A stretch of 64,000 nt of DNA from the NCBI RefSeq assembly GCF_013401515.1, contig NZ_CP058529.1, positions 2,356,001 through 2,420,000 of the forward strand. Reading direction: 5' to 3'. Origin of the DNA: Halorarum halophilum. Its GTDB lineage: Archaea; Halobacteriota; Halobacteria; Halobacteriales; Haloferacaceae. This document shows positions 7,556 through 18,347 of the stretch, one piece after another. Below the pieces are notes generated by a model. It was given only the letters and a program-made list of their open reading frames with translations. It was not told the DNA's origin and made no database searches. Every line of letters starts with the position of its first letter. Position 1 is the stretch's first letter. Both the position numbers and the translations under genes were made by a program.

Positions 7556-8434
7556 TCAGTACCGCGAGGGGAGGTACGCCAGCCCGATCATGAAGATGGA
7601 GATGAGGCCGCTCAGCAGCGTGACGCCCCAGAGCCCGTCCTTGTGCGTCTTGTAGTCGGTCGACTCCTGCTGGTAGGCCTGATACTGGTCGAACTGCTGG
7701 GTGAGCACCATCGTCTCGTTGTCCGGGAAGTAGGCGAAGTACGTGGTCGAGCCGACCGTGACGTTCGCCCGATCCTCGACCTCGACCTCGTTCGTCTGCG
7801 GGGCGGTCCACGCGAGCGTCGCGCCGCTGGAGTTGACGGTGTCGACGGTCGCCGTGTTGTTCTCAACGTTCGGCACCTCGTCGCCCTGCGAGTAGGTGCG
7901 CTCCTCCGGGGCGGGGAAGTACTCGTCGGCGGGGATCAGCTCCCGCGAGCCGTTCCCGTTGGCCGAGCGGACGACGTACTCCTGGCCGTCGACGGTGGTC
8001 GTCTGGTTCTCGACGGCGGAGTCGTTCTGGAGGATCGCCTGGCGGTTCTGTACCTCGCTGAGCGTGACGCTCTCGTTCTGGCCGGTCGGGACGGTGACGT
8101 TCCAGTCCTGGCCGTCGTAGGTGACGGTCGACCCGTTCTCCCACGTCAGCGTCTGCCGGGCCGAGGTGTTCGTCCAGTTGAGGGCGCCCGAGCGCTCCAG
8201 GGTCTCGCCGCCACCGCCGCCGTGGCCGCCGCCCCCACCGCCGGACATCTCGGCTTCGATGCTCTGGACGTTGTACTCGGTTCCGTCGACGGTGAAGCTC
8301 TCCCCCTGCTGGAGCGTGTGCTCGGGGTTCTCCACCGAGAAGTGCGGCGCGCTCGCGGTGGCGATGAGGGAGAACGACACCGCGCCCACGACGAGGAAGA
8401 ACGCGACGTAGACGGCGGCGGCGCGTCGTTGCAT
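7556..8434 (-). CDS. Membrane-anchored, sequon-rich surface protein of unknown function
   Basis: 292 residues. An N-terminal hydrophobic segment (about 8-28, VYVAFFLVVGAVSFSLIATA) acts as signal or anchor. A Gly-rich linker with one His lies near residues 65-78. A beta-rich extracellular part follows, with repeated TVDG/TYDGQ-W/EYxV motifs near residues 100-230. A second hydrophobic segment (LLSGLISIFMIGLAYLP) lies at the C-terminus. About twelve N-X-S/T sequons lie between the two membrane segments, so it is probably N-glycosylated on the cell surface. I do not recognise a family. It appears to be a single-gene transcript on the minus strand. Confidence 0.75.
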   Translation of the reverse strand: MQRRAAAVYVAFFLVVGAVSFSLIATASAPHFSVENPEHTLQQGESFTVDGTEYNVQSIEAEMSGGGGGGHGGGGGETLERSGALNWTNTSARQTLTWENGSTVTYDGQDWNVTVPTGQNESVTLSEVQNRQAILQNDSAVENQTTTVDGQEYVVRSANGNGSRELIPADEYFPAPEERTYSQGDEVPNVENNTATVDTVNSSGATLAWTAPQTNEVEVEDRANVTVGSTTYFAYFPDNETMVLTQQFDQYQAYQQESTDYKTHKDGLWGVTLLSGLISIFMIGLAYLPSRY

Positions 8435-8603
8435 ACGGGGAGGACGGGGCGCCCGGCGTTTAACCGTTACTTTCTGTGAGGACGACCGCGACGGTCCGGT
8501 CGTCCATCGACTCTGACCCGACCGTCTACCCGCCCCGTCACGACCGCATCCACTGGCTCCGCCCGCCCGGGGCTTTTTTGCGAATCGGCGGTGAGGTCCA
8601 GGT

Positions 8604-9401
8604 ATGGACTTCGATATCGGCGGGAACGCGGCGCTCGTGACGGCATCGAGCAGCGGGCTCGGGAAGGCGAGCGCACTGGCGCTGGCACGCGAGGGTGCGA
8701 ACGTCGTGATGAACGGCCGGGACGAGGAGCGCCTGGAGGCGGCCGTCGAGGACGTCGCCGCGGAGGCGACGGACGGCGCGACGGTCGTCGGGCAACCTGC
8801 CGACCTCACGGACGAGGCGGAGGTCGCGGCGCTGGTCGAACGGACCGTCGACGAGTTCGGCGGGCTCGACCACCTCGTGACGAGCGCGGGCGGGCCGCCC
8901 GCCGGCCCGTTCCTCGAGACGACCGACGAGGACTGGTACGAGGCGTACGACCTGCTCGTGATGAGCGTCGTCAGGCTCGTGCGCGAGGCGGCTGACCCGC
9001 TGCGCGCGGACGGCGGCGGCACCATCGTGAACATCACCTCCCGGAGCGTGAAGGAGGCCATCGACAACCTCGTGCTCTCGAACTCCGTCCGGATGAGCGT
9101 CGTCGGACTCGAGAAGACGCTCTCGACGGAACTCGCCCCCGAGGTCCGGTCGAACGCGGTGCTCCCCGGCTCGCACGAGACCTCGCGCATCGAGAACCTG
9201 ATGGAGGACGCCGTCGAGCGCGGCGACTACGACTCCTACGATGAGGCGCTGGCGGCCCGCGGCGAGGAGGTCCCGCTCGGGCGCATCGGCGACCCGATCG
9301 AACTGGGCAACGTCGTGGCGTTCCTCTCCTCGCCGAAGTCCGGGTTCGTCAACGGCGTCGCCATCCCCATCGACGGCGGCTCGGGCGCGTCGAATCTCTA
9401 A
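8604..9401 (+). CDS. Atypical short-chain dehydrogenase/reductase, ketoacyl-reductase-like
   Basis: 265 residues with a Rossmann fold. The dinucleotide motif is TASSSGLGKASA (about 14-25) and the NAG-like motif is SAGGPP. The usual YxxxK catalytic pair is absent: after the conserved Ser (NITSRS) the equivalent segment reads LSNSVRMSVVGLEKTL, with Ser/Arg where Tyr/Lys are expected. The C-terminus PIDGGSGASNL is typical of tetrameric SDRs. Atypical SDRs resembling ketoacyl reductases (for example YvaG-like proteins) have this substitution. Its neighbours are a cupin, an FAH-type hydrolase and a sugar transporter, so an oxidation step on a sugar derivative is possible, but the missing Tyr leaves activity uncertain. 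Confidence 0.85.
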   Translation: MDFDIGGNAALVTASSSGLGKASALALAREGANVVMNGRDEERLEAAVEDVAAEATDGATVVGQPADLTDEAEVAALVERTVDEFGGLDHLVTSAGGPPAGPFLETTDEDWYEAYDLLVMSVVRLVREAADPLRADGGGTIVNITSRSVKEAIDNLVLSNSVRMSVVGLEKTLSTELAPEVRSNAVLPGSHETSRIENLMEDAVERGDYDSYDEALAARGEEVPLGRIGDPIELGNVVAFLSSPKSGFVNGVAIPIDGGSGASNL

Positions 9402-9626
9402 CCTCATCCGTCGGTTTCTCGTTTCGTACTCTCTGATCTGAGCGACTGTTTGGGCGGTTCTGTACGGCCCGAAGCGCATCTGGCTCTGTACGCGACACGA
9501 ACGCCTCGAAAGCCTCCGGCTTCCGCGGTCGTCACCCCGGTAGCAGTCAAACACCATCCGACCAAATGGATCGTAACTACCCAACCGACACGACCATTGA
9601 ATACCGGCGAGTGCCCTCTCTACTCC

Positions 9627-10034
9627 ATGAAGCCGGTCGACTTCGACGAGGCCGAGACGTACGAACCCGACGAGGGCTGGCAGCGGCGCGCGCTCGCCGG
9701 CAGCGACCAGTTCAGCTTCGAGTGGTTCGAGAAGCCGCCGGGCCACTCCTCGCCGATGCACGATCACGGGAACGAACAGGTGTGCATGGTCCTGCGGGGG
9801 GAACTCACCATCCACACCGAGGACGACTCGGTGACGCTCGGGCAGTACGACTCGGTGCTGCTGGAGTCGTCGGAGCCCCACCGCGTCGAGAACACGGGCG
9901 ACGAACTGGCCGTCGGCCTGGACGTGTTCGCGCCGGGGCGCTCGTTCGACTTCTGGACCGACCGCGAGGACGACGCGGGGGACGAGGAGGAGGCCGGGGA
10001 AGCAGACGACGGCGAGCGGGAGGCGGGCGAGTAG
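9627..10034 (+). CDS. Small cupin-domain protein
   Basis: 135 residues forming one cupin barrel. The metal-site motif 1 is SPMHDHGNEQVCMVLRGE (His, His and Glu ligands) and motif 2 is SSEPHRVENTGDE. The last 25 residues are a very acidic tail (EDDAGDEEEAGEADD). ATG 9627 begins the cupin-like region (MKPVDFDEAETYEP). The stop is followed directly by the ATG of the FAH-family gene, so the two are co-transcribed. Single-domain cupins of this kind often act as mutarotases, isomerases or sensors in sugar metabolism; which one applies here cannot be told. Confidence 0.85.
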   Translation: MKPVDFDEAETYEPDEGWQRRALAGSDQFSFEWFEKPPGHSSPMHDHGNEQVCMVLRGELTIHTEDDSVTLGQYDSVLLESSEPHRVENTGDELAVGLDVFAPGRSFDFWTDREDDAGDEEEAGEADDGEREAGE

Positions 10035-10853
10035 ATGCAGTACCTCGCCCGGAGCGCCGACGGTCGGCCGCTCGTCGGCGACGAGGAGGGGTTCGTCCCG
10101 CTCCAGGCCGCCTACCCGGACGCGTCGAGCGTCCGCGACGTCCTCCCGCGGGCACCGGGCGGCCTGCGCGACCTCGACGACGTCCCTGCCGGGCGGATGC
10201 CCCGCGAGAACCTGTCGTTCGGCCCGTTCGTCGGGGAGCCGGGGAAGCTGTTCGGCATCGGGCTCAACTACGCCGACCACGCCGCGGACCTCTCAGAGGA
10301 CCCGCCGGAAGAGCCGGCGAGCTTCTTCAAGCCGAGCAGCGCGGTGACCGGCCCGGGCGGTCCGATCCGCCTGCCGCCCGAGTCGCAGTCGGAGCGCGTC
10401 ACCGCCGAGGCCGAACTCGCGGTCGTCATCGGCCGGACGTGCCGGAACGTGAGCGTCGACGAGGCCGACGAGGTGATCGCGGGGTTCGCGCCGATCATCG
10501 ACATGACCGCCGAGGACGTGCTCGAACGGAACCCGCGGTTCCTCACGCGGGCGAAGAGCTACGACACGTTCCTCGTGCTCGGCCCGCACCTCGCAGTTCC
10601 CGGCCCCGGGATGGACCTCGAGGACGTGGAGGTACGGACGGTCGTCGACGACGCCGTCGAGTCGCGCAACGTCGTCGCGAACATGCACTTCTCGCCGCGC
10701 GAGCTCGTGGCGTTCCACTCGAACGTGATGACGCTCGAACCCGGCGACGTCGTCTCCACGGGCACGCCGGGTGCCCACCCCATCGACCCCGGTGACCGAG
10801 TCCGCGCCGAGGTGGACGAGGTCGGGACGGTGGCTGCGGACGTCGTTCGGTAG
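10035..10853 (+). CDS. Fumarylacetoacetate hydrolase family protein
   Basis: 272 residues. The FAH catalytic domain covers about 75-270: GIGLNYADHAADL, SSAVTGPGGPIRLP, the metal-ligand region AEAELAVVIGR (Glu ligands), a conserved KSYDTFLVLGPHL and the C-terminal LEPGDVVSTGTPG. Members hydrolyse C-C bonds of 2,4-diketo acids or act as 2-keto-3-deoxy-acid dehydratases using a divalent metal. In haloarchaeal L-fucose/L-rhamnose degradation an FAH-type enzyme cleaves a 2,4-diketo-3-deoxy acid. With an SDR, a sugar ABC transporter and an enolase-superfamily dehydratase close by, that role is plausible here but unproven. It starts immediately after the cupin stop codon. Confidence 0.88.
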   Translation: MQYLARSADGRPLVGDEEGFVPLQAAYPDASSVRDVLPRAPGGLRDLDDVPAGRMPRENLSFGPFVGEPGKLFGIGLNYADHAADLSEDPPEEPASFFKPSSAVTGPGGPIRLPPESQSERVTAEAELAVVIGRTCRNVSVDEADEVIAGFAPIIDMTAEDVLERNPRFLTRAKSYDTFLVLGPHLAVPGPGMDLEDVEVRTVVDDAVESRNVVANMHFSPRELVAFHSNVMTLEPGDVVSTGTPGAHPIDPGDRVRAEVDEVGTVAADVVR

Positions 10854-10962: not shown

Positions 10963-12516
10963 ATGTCAGACCACGGCACGAACCGGCGGGCGTTTCTGGT
11001 GACGGCAGGCGCGACGGGGCTGGCCGCGACGGCCGGCTGCATGGGATTCGGCGGAGACGGTGGCGGTGGTGGCGGCGGTGGTAGCGAGGACTTCCTCTCG
11101 ACCGCGGAGGGGCTGGGGCTCGCGAACAACTGGCAGCAGCGCCGTATCGGCGCCGCGGACAGCTGGCCCATCGAAGCGCGCCGGCAGGTTCCCGACCGCC
11201 AGAGCGCCACGACCTGGACGGACAGCGAGGCGTTCCAGAGCGCCGTCGAGAACGACGTGTGGACGCCGCCGGAGGGGTGGCAGGACACCGCCGCCGGCGA
11301 CGTGGACACGCTCCAGATCCTCAACCACGGCGCGGCGAACATGGAGTTCGACCCCGCGACACTGGCCGCCCACGAGATGTTCACCGAGAAAACGGGGATC
11401 GAGCTGGACGTCATCGAGATCGGCGTCGACCAGGCGAACACGCGCGAGCAGCAGTTCCTCTCGTCCGAGGAGCCGAGCCCGCACGCGTTCAACGTCGACG
11501 GGATCCTCGTTCCGGTGTTCGTCGAGCAGGGCTACCTCGAGGCCACGGACGTCCTCTACCCGGAGGGTGGGTACGAACCGTACATCCCGGCGCTCCAGAG
11601 CCTCGTCCAGTGGGACCTGGACCCCCAGTACGAGGGGACCCACACCTTCGGCTACCCGAACATCGGCGAGGCGAGCATGGGCCACCTCCGGACGGACCTC
11701 GTCGAGGAGCAGGGGATCGACCCCTCGCGGTTCCAGGGCGAGTGGTCCTGGGACCTCCTCGAGGAGCTCGGCGAGGCGTTCAAGGGGACCGACCTGAACG
11801 CCTTCGCGTACTACGCCGGCACCTCGACGTACCTGGCGTACTCGTTCCGGGAGCTCCTCTTCCAGCAGGGCGGGCGCATGGTCCAGGACGACGGCACGGT
11901 CGTGATGAACTCCCCGGAGGCCGTCCGCGTCATCCAGAAGATGAAGGAGTGGCGCGACGCGGGCTACGTCCCCAGCGACGTCATCTCGTACGGCGAGGGG
12001 GATATCGTGGATCTGATGGCGTCGGGACAGCTGGCGTACACGACCGCGTTCAGCGACTTCATCCCGCGGCTGCTCCAGGAGTACGAGGCCGGTTCCCAGT
12101 ACCAGGTCGTCGTCCCGCCGGCTGCCAACGCGGGGCCGTCGCCGACCCAGGCGGGACTCGTCGCGCCGAACACGACGAGCATCAACCGGTTCTCGGACAC
12201 CGGCCACAAGCTGGCCTCGATGCTGTACGGCGACCTGAAACTGAGCTACTTCACCCAGTGGCTCGAGTTCACCTACGAGGGGAACATCTCGTACATGGAC
12301 CAGGTCTACACCGACTCGGCGGAGAACGACTTCGTCACGTTCGGGGAGGTTATGGGGAACGCCATCGAGAACGGCGTCCTCGAGCTCTTCCCGCAGATGG
12401 CCTCGGTGTTCCAGCAGATGCTCTCGCCGGCCCAGCGGGCGATCCAGGGCGAGATGTCCCCGCAGGAGGCGATGGACCAGGTGCAGAGCTTCGTGGACTC
12501 CGAGGTCAACAACTGA
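10963..12516 (+). CDS. CUT1-type sugar ABC transporter substrate-binding lipoprotein
   Basis: 517 residues. The N-terminus carries a Tat signal (NRRAFLVTAG, twin Arg at 8-9) followed by a lipobox ending at Cys26 (TAGC), then a Gly-rich linker, so it is a lipid-anchored extracellular protein. The rest is a family-1 solute-binding fold (ILNHGAANMEFDPA, TGIELDVIEIG, SGQLAYTTAFSDF). It is somewhat longer than typical maltose-binding-like proteins. It heads a five-gene run (binding protein, permease, permease, small ORF, ATPase) with 1-30 nt gaps, so all are likely one operon. The substrate is probably a sugar or oligosaccharide, by family and by neighbouring catabolic genes. Confidence 0.92.
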   Translation: MSDHGTNRRAFLVTAGATGLAATAGCMGFGGDGGGGGGGGSEDFLSTAEGLGLANNWQQRRIGAADSWPIEARRQVPDRQSATTWTDSEAFQSAVENDVWTPPEGWQDTAAGDVDTLQILNHGAANMEFDPATLAAHEMFTEKTGIELDVIEIGVDQANTREQQFLSSEEPSPHAFNVDGILVPVFVEQGYLEATDVLYPEGGYEPYIPALQSLVQWDLDPQYEGTHTFGYPNIGEASMGHLRTDLVEEQGIDPSRFQGEWSWDLLEELGEAFKGTDLNAFAYYAGTSTYLAYSFRELLFQQGGRMVQDDGTVVMNSPEAVRVIQKMKEWRDAGYVPSDVISYGEGDIVDLMASGQLAYTTAFSDFIPRLLQEYEAGSQYQVVVPPAANAGPSPTQAGLVAPNTTSINRFSDTGHKLASMLYGDLKLSYFTQWLEFTYEGNISYMDQVYTDSAENDFVTFGEVMGNAIENGVLELFPQMASVFQQMLSPAQRAIQGEMSPQEAMDQVQSFVDSEVNN

Positions 12517-12543
12517 TGACCTGGAGGTATTCACCGACCCGCC

Positions 12544-13491
12544 ATGGCCACTGAGGAGTTCGAGGGCGAGGTCGGCCCCCACGGCGGCGGCCTCACCGGC
12601 ACGATCTCCGACTGGGTGAACGACCACATCCGGACGGTGCTGCTCGGCCCGTCGCTAGTAGCGCTGTTCCTCGTGTTCATCTACCCGGCGGTGATGCTGC
12701 TGTGGCTGTCGCTCCAGAACACGCGCGGCTTCGGCGAGACGTTCGAACCGGCGTACAACTACGGGCGCATCTTCGGCGACCCGACGTTCTGGAACGCGGT
12801 CGAGAACACGCTCGTCTACTCGTTCGGCTCGCTCGTCGTCTCGGTGGGCGCCGGGCTGATCGTCGCGCTCGCGCTGAACAAGCTCGTCAACCAGCGGTTG
12901 CGGGACGCCTACTCGACGCTCATCCTCATCTCGTGGGCGGTGCCGCTGTCCATCGTCGGCGTCACCTGGCAGTGGATGTTCAACGGCGAGCTGGGGGTCG
13001 TCAACAAGGTCCTCATCGACCTCGGGGTACTCGACGCCGGGTACTCCTGGCTGTCGAACTCCGTGTCCGCGATGATCGTCGTCATCCTCGCCGACTCGTG
13101 GTCGCGCATCCCGTTCGCGACCATCGTGCTGCTCGCGGGACTCCAGTCCATCCCGCAGGACATGTACGACGCCGCGAAGACCGACGGCGCGACGACGTGG
13201 CAGACGTTCCGGCACGTCACGCTACCGTACCTGCGGCCGTCGTTCTTCGTCGCCGGGCTCATCACCTGGATGTTCGCGTTCCGCGCGTTCGCCATCCCGT
13301 TCTCGACGACGGGCGGCGGGCCGGGCGGCGCGACCGAGACCCTCGCCATCTACATCCACCGCTTCGGCATCCAGTTGCTCGACTACGGGTTCGCCTCGGC
13401 GGTCTCAGTGTTCCTCGTCGCGGTGACGCTGCTCGTCGCCACGGGGTACGTCTACTTCATCCTCGCACGGATGCAGGAGATCGAGGTGTAA
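12544..13491 (+). CDS. Sugar ABC transporter permease (MalF/UgpA-like)
   Basis: 315 residues with six predicted membrane helices. The first follows a 35-residue cytoplasmic N-terminus (LLGPSLVALFLVFIYPAVML). The EAA loop that contacts the ATPase is MYDAAKTDGATTWQTFRHV near residues 205-225. It forms the membrane channel with the permease that starts 1 nt after its stop. Start ATG 12544 follows 27 nt after the binding-protein stop. Family: binding-protein-dependent transport inner membrane component, CUT1 type. Confidence 0.93.
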   Translation: MATEEFEGEVGPHGGGLTGTISDWVNDHIRTVLLGPSLVALFLVFIYPAVMLLWLSLQNTRGFGETFEPAYNYGRIFGDPTFWNAVENTLVYSFGSLVVSVGAGLIVALALNKLVNQRLRDAYSTLILISWAVPLSIVGVTWQWMFNGELGVVNKVLIDLGVLDAGYSWLSNSVSAMIVVILADSWSRIPFATIVLLAGLQSIPQDMYDAAKTDGATTWQTFRHVTLPYLRPSFFVAGLITWMFAFRAFAIPFSTTGGGPGGATETLAIYIHRFGIQLLDYGFASAVSVFLVAVTLLVATGYVYFILARMQEIEV

Positions 13492-13492
13492 C

Positions 13493-14362
13493 ATGGCGGG
13501 GGCAGACTTCACCGTCGAGAAGTACCGGCGTCGACAGCGAATGTGGGACGCCGTCGAGAGCCGGTACGTCGTTCATCTGGTGCTGTTCGCGGCCGTGTTC
13601 TTCACCATCTCGCCGCTGGTGTGGCAGCTCATCACGTCGTTCAAGACCTCGCAGGGCGTCCTCGCGCTGACGTACCTGCCGCTGGACCCGACGATCGCAG
13701 CCTACGAGCGGGCGCTCATCGATCGGGGGTTCTGGCGCGCGGTCGTGAACAGCGTGATCATCGCCTCCGTGTCGACGGCGATCGTGATGGTGCTCGGGAC
13801 GCCGGCCGGCTACGTGTTCAGCCGGTTCCGGTTCCCGTTCGACAACGCGGTGTTCGTGTTTGTGCTGTTCACGCGGCTGTTCCCGCCCATCGGGCTGGTG
13901 ACGCCGTACTACCGGATCATGACGACGTTCGGGCTGTTGAACACGAAGACGGGCATCGTCATCGCGAACGTCTACCTCTGGCTCCCGCTCGTCATCTACA
14001 TCATGCGGAACTTCTTCATCACCATCCCCCAGTCCCTCGACGAGGCGGCCAGGGTCGACGGCTGCACGAAGATCCAGGCGTTCTGGCACGTCGTGTTCCC
14101 CGTCGTCCTGCCCGGCTTCGCCGCGGGGACCATCCTCACCTTCCTCTACTCCTGGCGGGAGTTCCTGTTCGCGTTCACCGTCAGCACCGACCTCACCTCG
14201 ATGACCATCCCGGTGGCGACGTTCCTGTTCGTCGGGGACGCGGGCATCGACTGGGCGGCGATGGCCGCCGCCTCCATCGTCTCCGTCATCCCGTCGGCGC
14301 TGGTGGTGGTCTTCTTCCAGCGGTACATCGTCGTCGGCATGACGGGAGGGATGAAGGGATGA
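13493..14362 (+). CDS. Sugar ABC transporter permease (MalG/UgpE-like)
   Basis: 289 residues with six membrane helices. The EAA motif is SLDEAARVDGCTKIQAFWHV (about 180-200) and the C-terminal QRYIVVGMTGGMKG is the signature tail of MalG/UgpE-type permeases. It pairs with the upstream permease in a heterodimer. The stop TGA overlaps the ATG of a 33-codon ORF (ATGA at 14359-14362). Confidence 0.94.
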   Translation: MAGADFTVEKYRRRQRMWDAVESRYVVHLVLFAAVFFTISPLVWQLITSFKTSQGVLALTYLPLDPTIAAYERALIDRGFWRAVVNSVIIASVSTAIVMVLGTPAGYVFSRFRFPFDNAVFVFVLFTRLFPPIGLVTPYYRIMTTFGLLNTKTGIVIANVYLWLPLVIYIMRNFFITIPQSLDEAARVDGCTKIQAFWHVVFPVVLPGFAAGTILTFLYSWREFLFAFTVSTDLTSMTIPVATFLFVGDAGIDWAAMAAASIVSVIPSALVVVFFQRYIVVGMTGGMKG

Positions 14363-14460
14363 CCGGGCCCCACTCGCCCCCGGCGACGCGGATCACCCGT
14401 GCGAACGGGACTCCGGAAGCACCGGCCGCACGACCGACCACGGAGACCATCGACCAATGA
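14359..14460 (+). CDS. Possible 33-residue coupled small ORF in the transporter operon
   Basis: ATG 14359 overlaps the permease stop and TGA 14458-14460 overlaps the ATPase start, so the ORF fills the permease-ATPase gap by ATGA overlaps at both ends. The product (start MTGPHSPPATRITRANG, end PTTETIDQ) is Pro/Thr-rich and polar and has no recognisable domain. It could be a translated microprotein or simply a ribosome-relay that couples ATPase synthesis to the permease. Composition alone does not prove it is coding. Confidence 0.35.
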   Translation: MTGPHSPPATRITRANGTPEAPAARPTTETIDQ

Positions 14461-15656
14461 GCGACACAGCAGGACCCAAAGCGGACGAGCGGACGACGCA
14501 ACGGACGGATCGCGACGTCAGCGTCGAACTCAGGGACGTCACCAAGACGTTCACCGAGGAGGACGGTTCGACCGTCGTCGCGGTCGAGGACCTGGACCTG
14601 ACGATCTACGACGGGGAGTTCGTCGTGATCGTCGGGCCCTCGGGCTGCGGGAAGACGACGACCCTGCGGATGATCGCGGGGCTGGAGGAGCCGACGGGAG
14701 GGGACATCGTCATCGAGGGGCGCGACGTGAAGGGGCTCGACCCCCGCGAGCGCGACATCGCAATGGTGTTCCAGAACTACGCGCTGTACCCGCACAAGAC
14801 GGTCCACGACAACATCGCGTTCCCGCTCCAGATCCGGAAGTACCCGGACGAGGAGGTCGAACAGCGCGTTCAGGAGGTCGCCGAGTCGCTCGACATCCCC
14901 GGCCTGCTCGACCGCCGCCCGTCGGATCTCTCGGGCGGGCAACAGCAGCGCGTCGCGCTCGGGCGCGCCATCGTGCGCGACCCCGCCGTGTTCCTGTTCG
15001 ACGAGCCGCTGTCGAACCTCGACGCGAAGCTCCGCATCGAGATGCGGACCGAACTGAACAAGCTCCACGACCGCGTCGGGAAGACCTCGGTGTACGTCAC
15101 CCACGACCAGGTCGAGGCGATGACGCTCTCGGACCGCGTCGTCGTGCTCGACGACGGGCAGCTCCAGCAGTTCGCGCCGCCCCAGGAGCTGTACAACGCG
15201 CCGGCCAACAAGTTCGTCGCGGGCTTCATCGGCGAGCCGCCGATGAACTTCTTCACCGCCCGCGTCGAGGAGCGCGGCGGGGAGTGGTGGGTCGTCTCCG
15301 ACGCGTTCGACCTCCGCCTGCCCGACGAGCACGACGCGAAGCTCCGCGAGTGGACCGGCGACCTCGGGAACGCCGAGTTCGGCGTCCGACCCGAACACCT
15401 GTTCGACGTCGCGGTCCAGGGCGACCCCGGCGAGGGAGCGACGTTCGACGTGCTGGTGAAGGTGATCGAGCCGATGGGGCCGCACATGGACGTGACGGTC
15501 GCGCCGGTCGACCGCCCCGACGACGAGGACGCCGAGTTCACGGCGCGCGTCTCGAACGAGAGCGACGTGTCCATCGGGGGCAGGGTCACCCTCGGCGTCG
15601 AACTCGACAAGGCGCACCTGTTCGACGGCCGGACCGGCGAGAACGTCCTCCGGTAG
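14457..15656 (+). CDS. Sugar ABC transporter ATP-binding protein (MalK/UgpC-like)
   Basis: 399 residues. Nucleotide-binding domain: Walker A GPSGCGKTTT (about 63-72), Q-loop VFQNYALYPHKT, signature LSGGQQQR, Walker B VFLFDEPLSNLDAKLR and the H-loop in YVTHDQVEAMTL. A C-terminal OB-type regulatory domain (about 270-399) ends in FDGRTGENVLR, as in the MalK family. It sits on the cytoplasmic side and powers import by the two upstream permeases. The N-terminus has an acidic extension of about 25 residues before the ABC core. Confidence 0.95.
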   Translation: MSDTAGPKADERTTQRTDRDVSVELRDVTKTFTEEDGSTVVAVEDLDLTIYDGEFVVIVGPSGCGKTTTLRMIAGLEEPTGGDIVIEGRDVKGLDPRERDIAMVFQNYALYPHKTVHDNIAFPLQIRKYPDEEVEQRVQEVAESLDIPGLLDRRPSDLSGGQQQRVALGRAIVRDPAVFLFDEPLSNLDAKLRIEMRTELNKLHDRVGKTSVYVTHDQVEAMTLSDRVVVLDDGQLQQFAPPQELYNAPANKFVAGFIGEPPMNFFTARVEERGGEWWVVSDAFDLRLPDEHDAKLREWTGDLGNAEFGVRPEHLFDVAVQGDPGEGATFDVLVKVIEPMGPHMDVTVAPVDRPDDEDAEFTARVSNESDVSIGGRVTLGVELDKAHLFDGRTGENVLR

Positions 15657-15733: not shown

Positions 15734-17026
15734 CTACCCGAGCGGCTCGAAGCGGGGCTCGCCGTCCGCGAACGAGAGTTCCTCCCGGCCCTCGACGGTG
15801 ACGCCGGCGGGCGGGTCGCGCGCGAGCGCCTCGGAGACGCGGAACGACGACAGCGACGCCGTGTCGCGAATCCAGGCGACGCGGACGTCCGCCGGGTCGT
15901 AGGTGCCGATCGTGGAGAGCGCCGCCGTGACCGCGTGCTCGTCGTCGGGGAGGACGACCGGGAGCTTCGCCTTGCTGAGCGACCCGCTCGTGAGCGCGTT
16001 CGTGTACACCTGGTCGAGGTCGAGTTCCTCGGCGACCGCGCGGGTCGTCACGTCCGCGAGGCCGATGCCGTTGCCGTTGCCGTGGGTCGCCTCGGTGAGC
16101 CCCCGGACGACGATGCGCTTGATGGCGGGGTGCTCGGGGTCGTCCGCGTTCAGCACGCTGTACCGGCCGACGACGTTGGTGTCCATCCCCGCGCCGGAGA
16201 CGTCCTTTCCGATCTCGTCGACGACGAGCACGTCGAGTTCGTCGAACGGGAGCGTCGGCATGTACTCGTCGGCCAGTTCCAGCAGCGGCTCCTCCGCGTC
16301 GGGGAGCGCCGACGCGGGGACGCCCTCGACGCGGGCGGTCCGGTCGTGGAAGTTCTCCACGATGGCGAGGCCCCCGAGCAGCGGCGCCTCCGCGCGAACC
16401 ACGTCGAGCGCGGCCGCGAGGACGCGGACGTATCCCTTCACGAGCGCGTGCTCGTGGGCCGCCTTCGCGCCGGGCTGTTTGCCCAGCCCGATGGTCGCCA
16501 TCTTCGTCAGCCCGCTCTCGAACCGGCCCGTGAAGTTGGTGTGGGCCTTCACGCGGTTGATCACGAGGGCGCCGTCGGCCTCGAGCGCGGCCGTCGAGAA
16601 CGGGACCGGGGCGCCGACGGCCGACTCGCCGAGGGTGGTCGTGTCCATCCGCGCGTCGACGGGGCAGCCGAGCGCCTCCTCGGTGAGGCCGATGCCGGCG
16701 AGGGTCCGTCGCTGTCCCTCGGCGGTCGCGCCCCCGTGGCTCCCCATCGCTGGGACGACGAACGGCTCGAAGCCGCGCCGTTCCAGTTCGTCGATCACCG
16801 CCCGCGCGATTGGGACGACGTCGTGGATGCCGCGGCTCCCCAGCCCGACGGCGACGCTCGCTCCCCCGGGGAGGTCGCCGAGCGGGAGTTCGGCGAGTTC
16901 ACCCCGAGCCGCCGCCTCCACGTCCGCCAGTTCCGGCGTCTCCGGCTCGTACCGGACCGACGCGAACCGGGGGAGCGCCGGCGGATGGAGCATCGCGTCG
17001 ACGACGCTTGCGTCCGGGAATCGCAT
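15734..17026 (-). CDS. LarA-family (DUF2088) 2-hydroxyacid racemase-like protein
   Basis: 430 residues. Features of the lactate racemase LarA superfamily: an N-terminal domain with GLGSRGIHD and PAMGSHGGATAEGQ (about 55-105), a second domain with VINRVKAHTNFTGRFESG and LTKMATIGLGKQPGA (about 160-190), and VVDEIGKDVSGAGMDTN. LarA itself uses a Ni-pincer cofactor made by LarB, LarC and LarE, none of which is in this window. Family members act on diverse 2-hydroxy acids. ATG 17026 is divergent from the dehydratase gene by 97 bp, so the two probably share a control region. Substrate unknown; a sugar-derived hydroxy acid fits the context. Confidence 0.8.
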   Translation of the reverse strand: MRFPDASVVDAMLHPPALPRFASVRYEPETPELADVEAAARGELAELPLGDLPGGASVAVGLGSRGIHDVVPIARAVIDELERRGFEPFVVPAMGSHGGATAEGQRRTLAGIGLTEEALGCPVDARMDTTTLGESAVGAPVPFSTAALEADGALVINRVKAHTNFTGRFESGLTKMATIGLGKQPGAKAAHEHALVKGYVRVLAAALDVVRAEAPLLGGLAIVENFHDRTARVEGVPASALPDAEEPLLELADEYMPTLPFDELDVLVVDEIGKDVSGAGMDTNVVGRYSVLNADDPEHPAIKRIVVRGLTEATHGNGNGIGLADVTTRAVAEELDLDQVYTNALTSGSLSKAKLPVVLPDDEHAVTAALSTIGTYDPADVRVAWIRDTASLSSFRVSEALARDPPAGVTVEGREELSFADGEPRFEPLG

Positions 17027-17100
17027 GTGAGGTAGTGTGACGGGCGGCGGGTAAACGGTGTCGGAAGTGGTTCGTGCTACCATGTGGCATAGAGATTTGC

Positions 17101-17112
17101 CGGTTCGAACCG
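17101..17112. promoter_or_regulatory. Perfect 12-bp palindrome between divergent genes
   Basis: CGGTTCGAACCG is exactly self-complementary and lies 11 nt upstream of the dehydratase ATG, in the gap shared with the divergent LarA-like gene. The position suits an operator, but no regulator gene adjoins it. Confidence 0.35.
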
Positions 17113-17123
17113 AACCGTCCCGC

Positions 17124-18347
17124 ATGGAAATCGCCGAGGTCGAGAGTTTCGCCGTGTCCATCCCGCTGGACGAGCCGGTCTCGTTCGCGACGCGGACCGT
17201 CGAGGAGCGCGACCACGCCATCACGTACGTCCGAACCGCCGACGGGATCGAGGGGCTCGGCTACACGCTCGGGTACGGCGGGGCGGGGCTCGTCGCCGAC
17301 GCCGTGACGGACGTGCTCGCGCCGATGGTCGAGGGCGAGGACCCGCGCGACACCGAGCGCCTCTGGCGCGAAATGTTCGACGGCACCGTCCAGATCGGCC
17401 GGAAGGGCGCCATACTGCGGGCCATCGCCGTCGTGGACATCGCGCTCTGGGACCTCGCGGGGAAGCTCCTCGACGTGCCGACCTACCAGCTCCTCGGCGG
17501 GAAGTACCGCGACGAGGTTCGCATCTACTGCGACCTCCACGCGGGCGAGGCGTACGCGGTCGACACCGGCTACACCGAGTACGGCGAGGAGGAGTCCTAC
17601 ACGCCGGCGGCGTACGCCGAGACCGCCGAGCAGGCCGTCGAACTCGGGTTCGACGCCATCAAGTTCGACCTCGACACGCCGACGGACAACGAGCCGGACC
17701 CGTTCAACGGCCGGCTATCGGCCGCGGACGTGGAGGACAAGCGCGAGATCGTCGCCGCCGTCGACGAGGCCGTCCCCGACGAGGTGGAGGTCGCGTTCGA
17801 CTGCCACTGGGACTACTCGCTCGACGCCGCCAAGCGGCTGGCCCGCGCGCTGTAGCCGTACGGCCTCATGTGGCTCGAGGACGTCGTCCCGCGGGAGAAC
17901 GTGAAGGCGCAACGGGAGGTCGCCCGCTCGACTAGCACGCCGCTCGCGACCGGGGAGAACCGCTTCCGCGTCCACGAGTTCTCCGAACTGCTGTACGAGT
18001 TCGCGGTCGACGTCGTGACGCCGGACCCGACCACCTGCGGGGGGCTCGCGGAGTCGCGGGCCATCGCGAACCGGGCGGAGGAGAACTACATCGTCTTCTC
18101 GCCGCACAACGTCTGCGGCCCCGTCGGGACGATGGCGTGCGTCCACCTCGGGGCGTCGATTGCGAACTTCGGCGTGCTGGAGTTCCACGCGCTGGAGGTG
18201 GACTGGTGGGACGACCTCGTGACGCGCTCGGACCCCCTCATCGAGGACGGGTACGTCGCCGTGCCCGAGGCGCCGGGGCTCGGCGTCGAACTCGACGAGG
18301 ACGTGGCCGCCGAACACGCGAAGGGCGACGGCGACCTCTGGTCGTGA
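17124..18347 (+). pseudogene. Enolase-superfamily sugar-acid dehydratase, interrupted by in-frame TAG
   Basis: One reading frame of 407 coding positions is interrupted by TAG at codon 244 (17853-17855). The halves continue the same protein without frameshift: the text reads AKRLARAL-stop-PYGLMWLED, where the family normally has Glu, so a single GAG-to-TAG change explains it. The N-terminal part has the mandelate-racemase/muconate-lactonising lid (MEIAEVESFAVSIPLDEPV) and barrel strands up to IKFDLD and FDCHWDY. The C-terminal part holds metal ligands in WLED and ATGEN and the catalytic His of FSPHNVCGP. The pattern suits a gluconate- or galactonate-type sugar-acid dehydratase. As read, only a truncated, probably inactive protein would be made unless the stop is read through or is a sequencing error. 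Confidence 0.88.

What the first reader, a model, noticed from the sequence alone, without database searches (positions are those of the whole stretch)
17124..18347. In-frame amber codon in an otherwise intact sugar-acid dehydratase
Both halves of an enolase-superfamily enzyme are preserved in one frame, with all visible catalytic residues, but codon 244 is TAG where relatives have Glu (GAG). A single transversion accounts for it. It may be a very recent nonsense mutation, a sequencing error, or a codon that is read through. Loss would disable the adjacent sugar-acid pathway.
Basis: seen in the sequence. Interest (0 to 1): 0.6.

Follow-up and report, generated by a model that had tools for sequence, protein, structure and literature searches.

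The report
Fused dehydratase gene with premature stop
A salt-loving archaeon carries the remnant of two neighbouring sugar-acid enzyme genes that a deletion fused into one and a stop codon silenced; a related species suffered the same kind of fusion at the same short DNA match, so this is ordinary gene decay with an unusually clear and repeated mechanism.

Summary
The TAG at 17853-17855 is really in the assembly (codon 244; the relatives compared have Glu). But the gene is not "otherwise intact". It is a chimera of two adjacent enolase-superfamily dehydratase genes, A and B, which stand in tandem in about 50 other haloarchaea. Residues 1-105 come from A and 111-407 from B, joined inside a 15-bp block (17439-17453). 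A congener keeps both genes intact at the fully syntenic place; about 1.1 kb is missing here. Another congener has an independent A-B fusion, made from a different A/B pair at the same 15-bp block. It has its own TAG at another codon, made by an 8-bp micro-inversion, and has lost its 3' end. Both fusion-bearing genomes keep one intact A/B pair. No CUA tRNA was found, no pyrrolysyl-tRNA synthetase scores above cut-off, and TAG ends neighbouring genes. The truncated product would lack two of three metal ligands and the catalytic His. Substitutions on both sides of the stop still look constrained, so inactivation is recent, or the stop base is a sequencing error. Best reading: a recent fusion pseudogene, tolerated through redundancy. 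Readthrough is unlikely.

The parts
17124..18347 (+). A-B fusion gene (frame of 407 codons plus TGA) interrupted by TAG
17124..17438 (+). A-derived part, residues 1-105 (most of the capping domain); 91% aa identity to gene A of G001, about 92% nt
17439..17453 (+). ATCGCGCTCTGGGAC (IALWD): junction block; the corresponding 15 bp ATCGCGCTGTGGGAC are identical between A and B in this genome's second pair and form the exact junction in G002
17454..18344 (+). B-derived part, residues 111-407 (barrel); 89% aa identity to gene B of G001
17853..17855 (+). in-frame TAG, codon 244; Glu in all relatives compared
17799..17801 (+). Asp226, presumed first metal ligand, before the stop
   Evidence: role inferred from the superfamily
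17877..17879 (+). Glu252, presumed second metal ligand, after the stop
   Evidence: role inferred
17955..17957 (+). Glu278, presumed third metal ligand, after the stop
   Evidence: role inferred
18105..18107 (+). His328, presumed general base/acid, after the stop
   Evidence: role inferred
15734..17140 (-). divergent neighbour, nickel-pincer-cofactor-dependent isomerase group 22 (NF052515; LarA-like), intact; true start probably near 17028
10035..10853 (+). fumarylacetoacetate hydrolase-family protein of the same cluster, intact, ends in TAG
10963..15656 (+). ABC sugar-type transporter: binding protein, two permeases, ATPase (ATPase ends in TAG)
   Evidence: permeases named from gene order and sequence

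Best explanation
The feature is a recent fusion pseudogene. The ancestral locus held two tandem, about 30% identical enolase-superfamily dehydratase genes, A (talarate/galactarate- or arabinonate-dehydratase-like) then B (galactonate/mannonate-dehydratase-like). A deletion of about 1.1 kb between the in-register IALWD codons of A and B removed the A barrel and the B cap, leaving an in-frame A-cap/B-barrel gene. A G-to-T change then (or before) created TAG at codon 244. The truncated 243-residue product lacks two metal ligands and the catalytic His and should be inactive. The loss was tolerated because a second, intact A-B pair exists in the genome. Shown: chimerism, junction, intact syntenic pair, second pair, a parallel fusion in a congener. 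Inferred: deletion by short-homology recombination or end-joining, order of events, loss of function, redundancy as the reason.
For: Intact A (7607-8710) and B (8713-9939) at the syntenic place of G001, with the same transporter, hydrolase and isomerase upstream and the same membrane protein and oxidase downstream. Identity of the frame switches from A to B between 17438 and 17454. Separate trees put the N-terminal part in the A clade and the rest in the B clade, each at 100/100. In G002 a second fusion, from the other pair (A2-B2), has its junction in the same 15 bp, the longest A2/B2 match and in register; it also has a TAG made by an 8-bp inversion between two GCCGGC and a lost 3' end. Intact A2-B2 in this genome. 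Tandem A-B in about 50 haloarchaeal loci, fusions in only these two among the genomes searched. TAG ends neighbouring genes; no CUA anticodon, PylS model only below cut-off. Microhomology-mediated end-joining is documented in Haloferax volcanii (PMC2700283; PMC7521656).
Against: No relaxed constraint is visible: dN/dS vs G001 is 0.21 (A part), 0.21 (B before stop) and 0.20 (B after stop), like the intact neighbours (0.17-0.41), and the window branch has no excess of amino-acid changes. So decay must be very young, or the stop is an error. No read data were available. The two genomes' fusions were judged independent from trees with 89/95 (A side) and 100/92 (B side) support.
Confidence: 0.82

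Rival explanations
1. The TAG is a sequencing error and the cell makes a full-length A-cap/B-barrel chimeric enzyme.
For: dN/dS on both sides of the stop equals that of intact neighbours; the window branch shows no excess of changes; presumed catalytic residues are all present.
Against: An isolated substitution outside a homopolymer in a 4-contig, 99.85% complete assembly is not a typical error. In the only parallel case the fusion is clearly dead. Cap loops of A with a barrel of B, which differ at about 30% identity, would probably not make a matched active site.
Confidence: 0.12
2. The TAG is read through (suppressor tRNA, recoding, or pyrrolysine), giving a functional protein.
For: Frame kept on both sides with constrained substitutions; prokaryotic in-frame stops with such patterns have been argued to be read through (PMC7918605, abstract).
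Against: The codon is Glu, not TAG, in the relatives compared. No CUA tRNA among the 72 tRNA matches of the genome, including a 31-tRNA array on contig C4. No PylS above cut-off. TAG ends the hydrolase, transporter ATPase and isomerase genes next door. The G002 TAG is at another codon.
Confidence: 0.03
3. The fusion is an assembly artefact (A and B collapsed).
For: A and B are paralogs next to each other and the genome has a second pair.
Confidence: 0.02
4. The fusion was a selected, working domain-swap enzyme, only recently hit by the stop.
For: In-frame junction close to the cap/barrel boundary; constraint still visible; the same fusion arose twice.
Against: In-register recombination of homologous genes is in frame by necessity. 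Both fusions carry stops, one also lost its end. No intact fusion was found in any genome searched.
Confidence: 0.1

Closest known systems
Mandelate racemase/muconate lactonizing subgroup dehydratases (enolase superfamily)
   Same: Domains MR_MLE_N and MR_MLE_C, presumed metal ligands and His in place; A side closest to L-talarate/galactarate and archaeal arabinonate dehydratases, B side to galactonate/mannonate dehydratases and the uncharacterised PDB 2qq6
   Different: All curated NCBIfam models score below their cut-offs, so substrates of A and B are unknown; the window gene joins two subgroups and is interrupted
Fusion pseudogenes from unequal or short-homology recombination between tandem paralogs
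   Same: Loss of the 3' part of the first and 5' part of the second gene, in-register junction in a shared motif, redundancy elsewhere
   Different: Parents only about 30% identical, junction in about 15 bp; seen twice at the same block in two congeners
Archaeal UAG readthrough / pyrrolysine genes
   Same: In-frame UAG inside a long open frame
   Different: Not conserved, no PylS above cut-off, no CUA tRNA found

Membership tests
Fusion (chimeric) pseudogene | 5' and 3' parts derive from different parent genes | tested here: met
   identity switch and two separate trees
Fusion (chimeric) pseudogene | parents adjacent and intact at the syntenic place in a relative | tested here: met
   G001 L043
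Fusion (chimeric) pseudogene | frame disabled | tested here: met
Fusion (chimeric) pseudogene | relaxed selection after inactivation | tested here: not met
   dN/dS about 0.2 on both sides, no branch excess; expected if very recent
Enolase-superfamily sugar-acid dehydratase | MR_MLE_N and MR_MLE_C domains with metal ligands and His | tested here: met
   on the read-through frame only
Enolase-superfamily sugar-acid dehydratase | catalytic activity and substrate | not testable with these tools
   no NCBIfam model passes its cut-off
Readthrough or recoded UAG gene | decoder (CUA tRNA, or PylS) | tested here: not met
   a tRNA with a long intron could be missed
Readthrough or recoded UAG gene | UAG conserved at the site in relatives | tested here: not met

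The most novel reading that the evidence does not exclude
Recombination at the short conserved IALWD-coding block, near the cap/barrel boundary, repeatedly builds domain-swapped enolase-superfamily enzymes in haloarchaea; the window fusion was a working enzyme until a very recent stop, and a few such fusions elsewhere survive as new enzymes.
Probability: 0.1. Interest if true: 0.55.

Novelty: new member of a known kind. Interest (0 to 1): 0.3.

Why it matters
It corrects an 'intact gene with one bad codon' to a two-gene fusion, which changes what should be tested (which paralog pair carries the pathway) and warns against calling such stops readthrough because dN/dS is low. Two independent fusions of about 30% identical neighbours at the same 15 bp give a natural case of short-homology deletion in haloarchaea and a testable hot spot at the boundary between specificity and catalytic domains.

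Tried and rejected
Suppressor tRNA and pyrrolysine: no CUA among tRNAs of the chromosome or the tRNA-rich contig C4; L093 is an intron-containing tRNA with anticodon TCT, read by eye; L106 is a poor match without a clear CUA. The TAG reported inside another own-genome paralog (C1:1373212-1373676) is consistent with that gene's normal end. Decay signature by dN/dS and branch counts: none. Other A-B fusions in wider searches: none beyond G002, though truncated A relics (28-57 residues) precede B in three loci. Literature on the function of the A-B pair: nothing specific found. No structure prediction was run, because a fold model of the chimera would not decide between the rivals.

Full report
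Observation. The frame 17124-18347 on the + strand is open apart from TAG at 17853-17855, codon 244. The stretch before the stop matches MR_MLE_N and the beginning of MR_MLE_C, and the stretch after it matches the rest of MR_MLE_C. The site is Glu in the congener G001 and in five further relatives, and GAG in G001.

The gene is a chimera. The own genome has over 30 enolase-superfamily genes. Two of them, here A2 and B2, stand in tandem and are intact (L011/L046). The window frame resembles A at its N-terminus and B in the rest. In the congener G001 the same neighbourhood is preserved in the same order: FAA-family hydrolase, binding protein, two permeases, ATPase, divergent nickel-pincer isomerase, then A (7607-8710), B (8713-9939), membrane protein and oxidase genes. 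In 30-bp windows, identity to G001 A is 0.83-1.00 up to about 17440 and then collapses, while identity to G001 B rises to 0.73-1.00. The last A-specific base is at 17438 and the first base that both B parents support against both A parents is at 17454, leaving the 15-bp block ATCGCGCTCTGGGAC (17439-17453) as the junction zone. In G001 coordinates the missing stretch is about 1,103 bp (computed). Separate maximum-likelihood trees place the N-terminal part among A genes and the remainder among B genes, each clade with 100/100 support.

It happened twice. Of the genomes searched (148 in the family, 391 in the class, overlapping) only one other contains a fused A-B frame: G002, a congener. That fusion lies beside the protein that neighbours A2-B2 in the window genome, and its parts group with A2 (89/95) and B2 (100/92), not with the parents of the window gene. 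Its junction falls in the same block, ATCGCGCTGTGGGAC, which is the longest exact A2/B2 match and is in register. It has its own TAG at a different codon. Comparison with B2 shows why: GCCGGC-TACCACTC-GCCGGC has become GCCGGC-GAGTGGTA-GCCGGC, an 8-bp micro-inversion between two copies of a palindrome, and the new order spells TAG. Its 3' end is replaced by an antisense piece of another dehydratase gene. That copy is plainly dead. The class search used a strict E-value (1e-125), so decayed fusions could have been missed.

Background state. Among loci fetched by sequence from named genomes, about 50 show A directly upstream of B, usually less than 150 bp apart. Three have only an A relic of 28-57 residues before B (L050, L151, L179). 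G001 has one A-B pair, intact; the window genome has one fused and one intact pair; G002 has one fused pair and one intact A and B in convergent orientation beside its isomerase gene. So the pair collapsed in the two genomes that had a spare. This is a pattern in three genomes, not a statistical test.

Function and consequence. A and B score below every curated cut-off: A is nearest to talarate/galactarate and arabinonate dehydratases, B to galactonate and mannonate dehydratases; nearest solved structures are 3msy/2pp0 for A and 2qq6 for B. From superfamily knowledge D226, E252 and E278 should be the metal ligands and H328 the general base (positions). The stop at 244 removes two ligands and the His, so the truncated product should be inactive. 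The fusion itself would pair A-type cap loops with a B-type barrel; whether that could work is unknown.

Timing. dN/dS against G001 is 0.21 for the A part, 0.21 for B before the stop and 0.20 after it; intact neighbours give 0.17-0.41. Against outgroups the window branch carries no more amino-acid changes than the G001 branch (8 versus 11). Hence the inactivation is recent relative to the split from G001, or the stop is an error. The low ratio is not evidence of readthrough, because almost all of the compared divergence predates the stop. The order of fusion and stop cannot be told.

Readthrough. The covariance search found 72 tRNA matches; none of the anticodons read by ARAGORN, nor the intron-containing one read by eye, is CUA. 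The PylS C-terminal model gives only sub-threshold hits of the kind that ring in 13 of 14 control genomes. Three neighbouring genes end in TAG. Nothing supports decoding of this TAG.

Mechanism. Deletion by short homology is known in Haloferax volcanii: inaccurate plasmid repair gave deletions of 6-977 bp with 3-5 bp microhomology (PMC2700283), and self-targeting by CRISPR provokes such deletions (PMC7521656). A 15-bp in-register match fits such a pathway, but homologous recombination or replication slippage cannot be told apart from sequence.

Verdict. A recent fusion pseudogene, ordinary in kind, with an unusually well resolved and repeated mechanism.

Noticed in passing
G000:C4:45500-59500 (locus L087), contig of 148,857 bp in the window's genome: Array of 31 tRNA genes covering most amino acids, next to Orc1/Cdc6-like and ParA-like genes (named by eye) on a small replicon; only a trace of similarity to halovirus HCTV-5. 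Perhaps a virus-like or plasmid replicon with its own tRNA set.
   Followed up: partly
L044:8498-8517 (G002): 8-bp micro-inversion between two GCCGGC palindromes that creates a TAG in the second fusion gene.
   Followed up: yes
L044:9040-9420 (G002): 3' end of the second fusion joined to an antisense fragment of another enolase-superfamily gene: a further rearrangement between inverted paralogs.
   Followed up: partly
L050:10170-10253, L151:5001-5129, L179:5001-5162: Short A relics (28, 43 and 57 residues) just upstream of intact B: separate partial losses of A.
   Followed up: partly
G000:C1, about 1.31-1.41 Mb: Dense cluster of many enolase-superfamily paralogs in the window's genome, over 30 members genome-wide; largely unassigned substrates.
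   Followed up: no
about 50 haloarchaeal loci: Conserved tandem A-B pair of two different dehydratase subgroups; its pathway appears unassigned.
   Followed up: no
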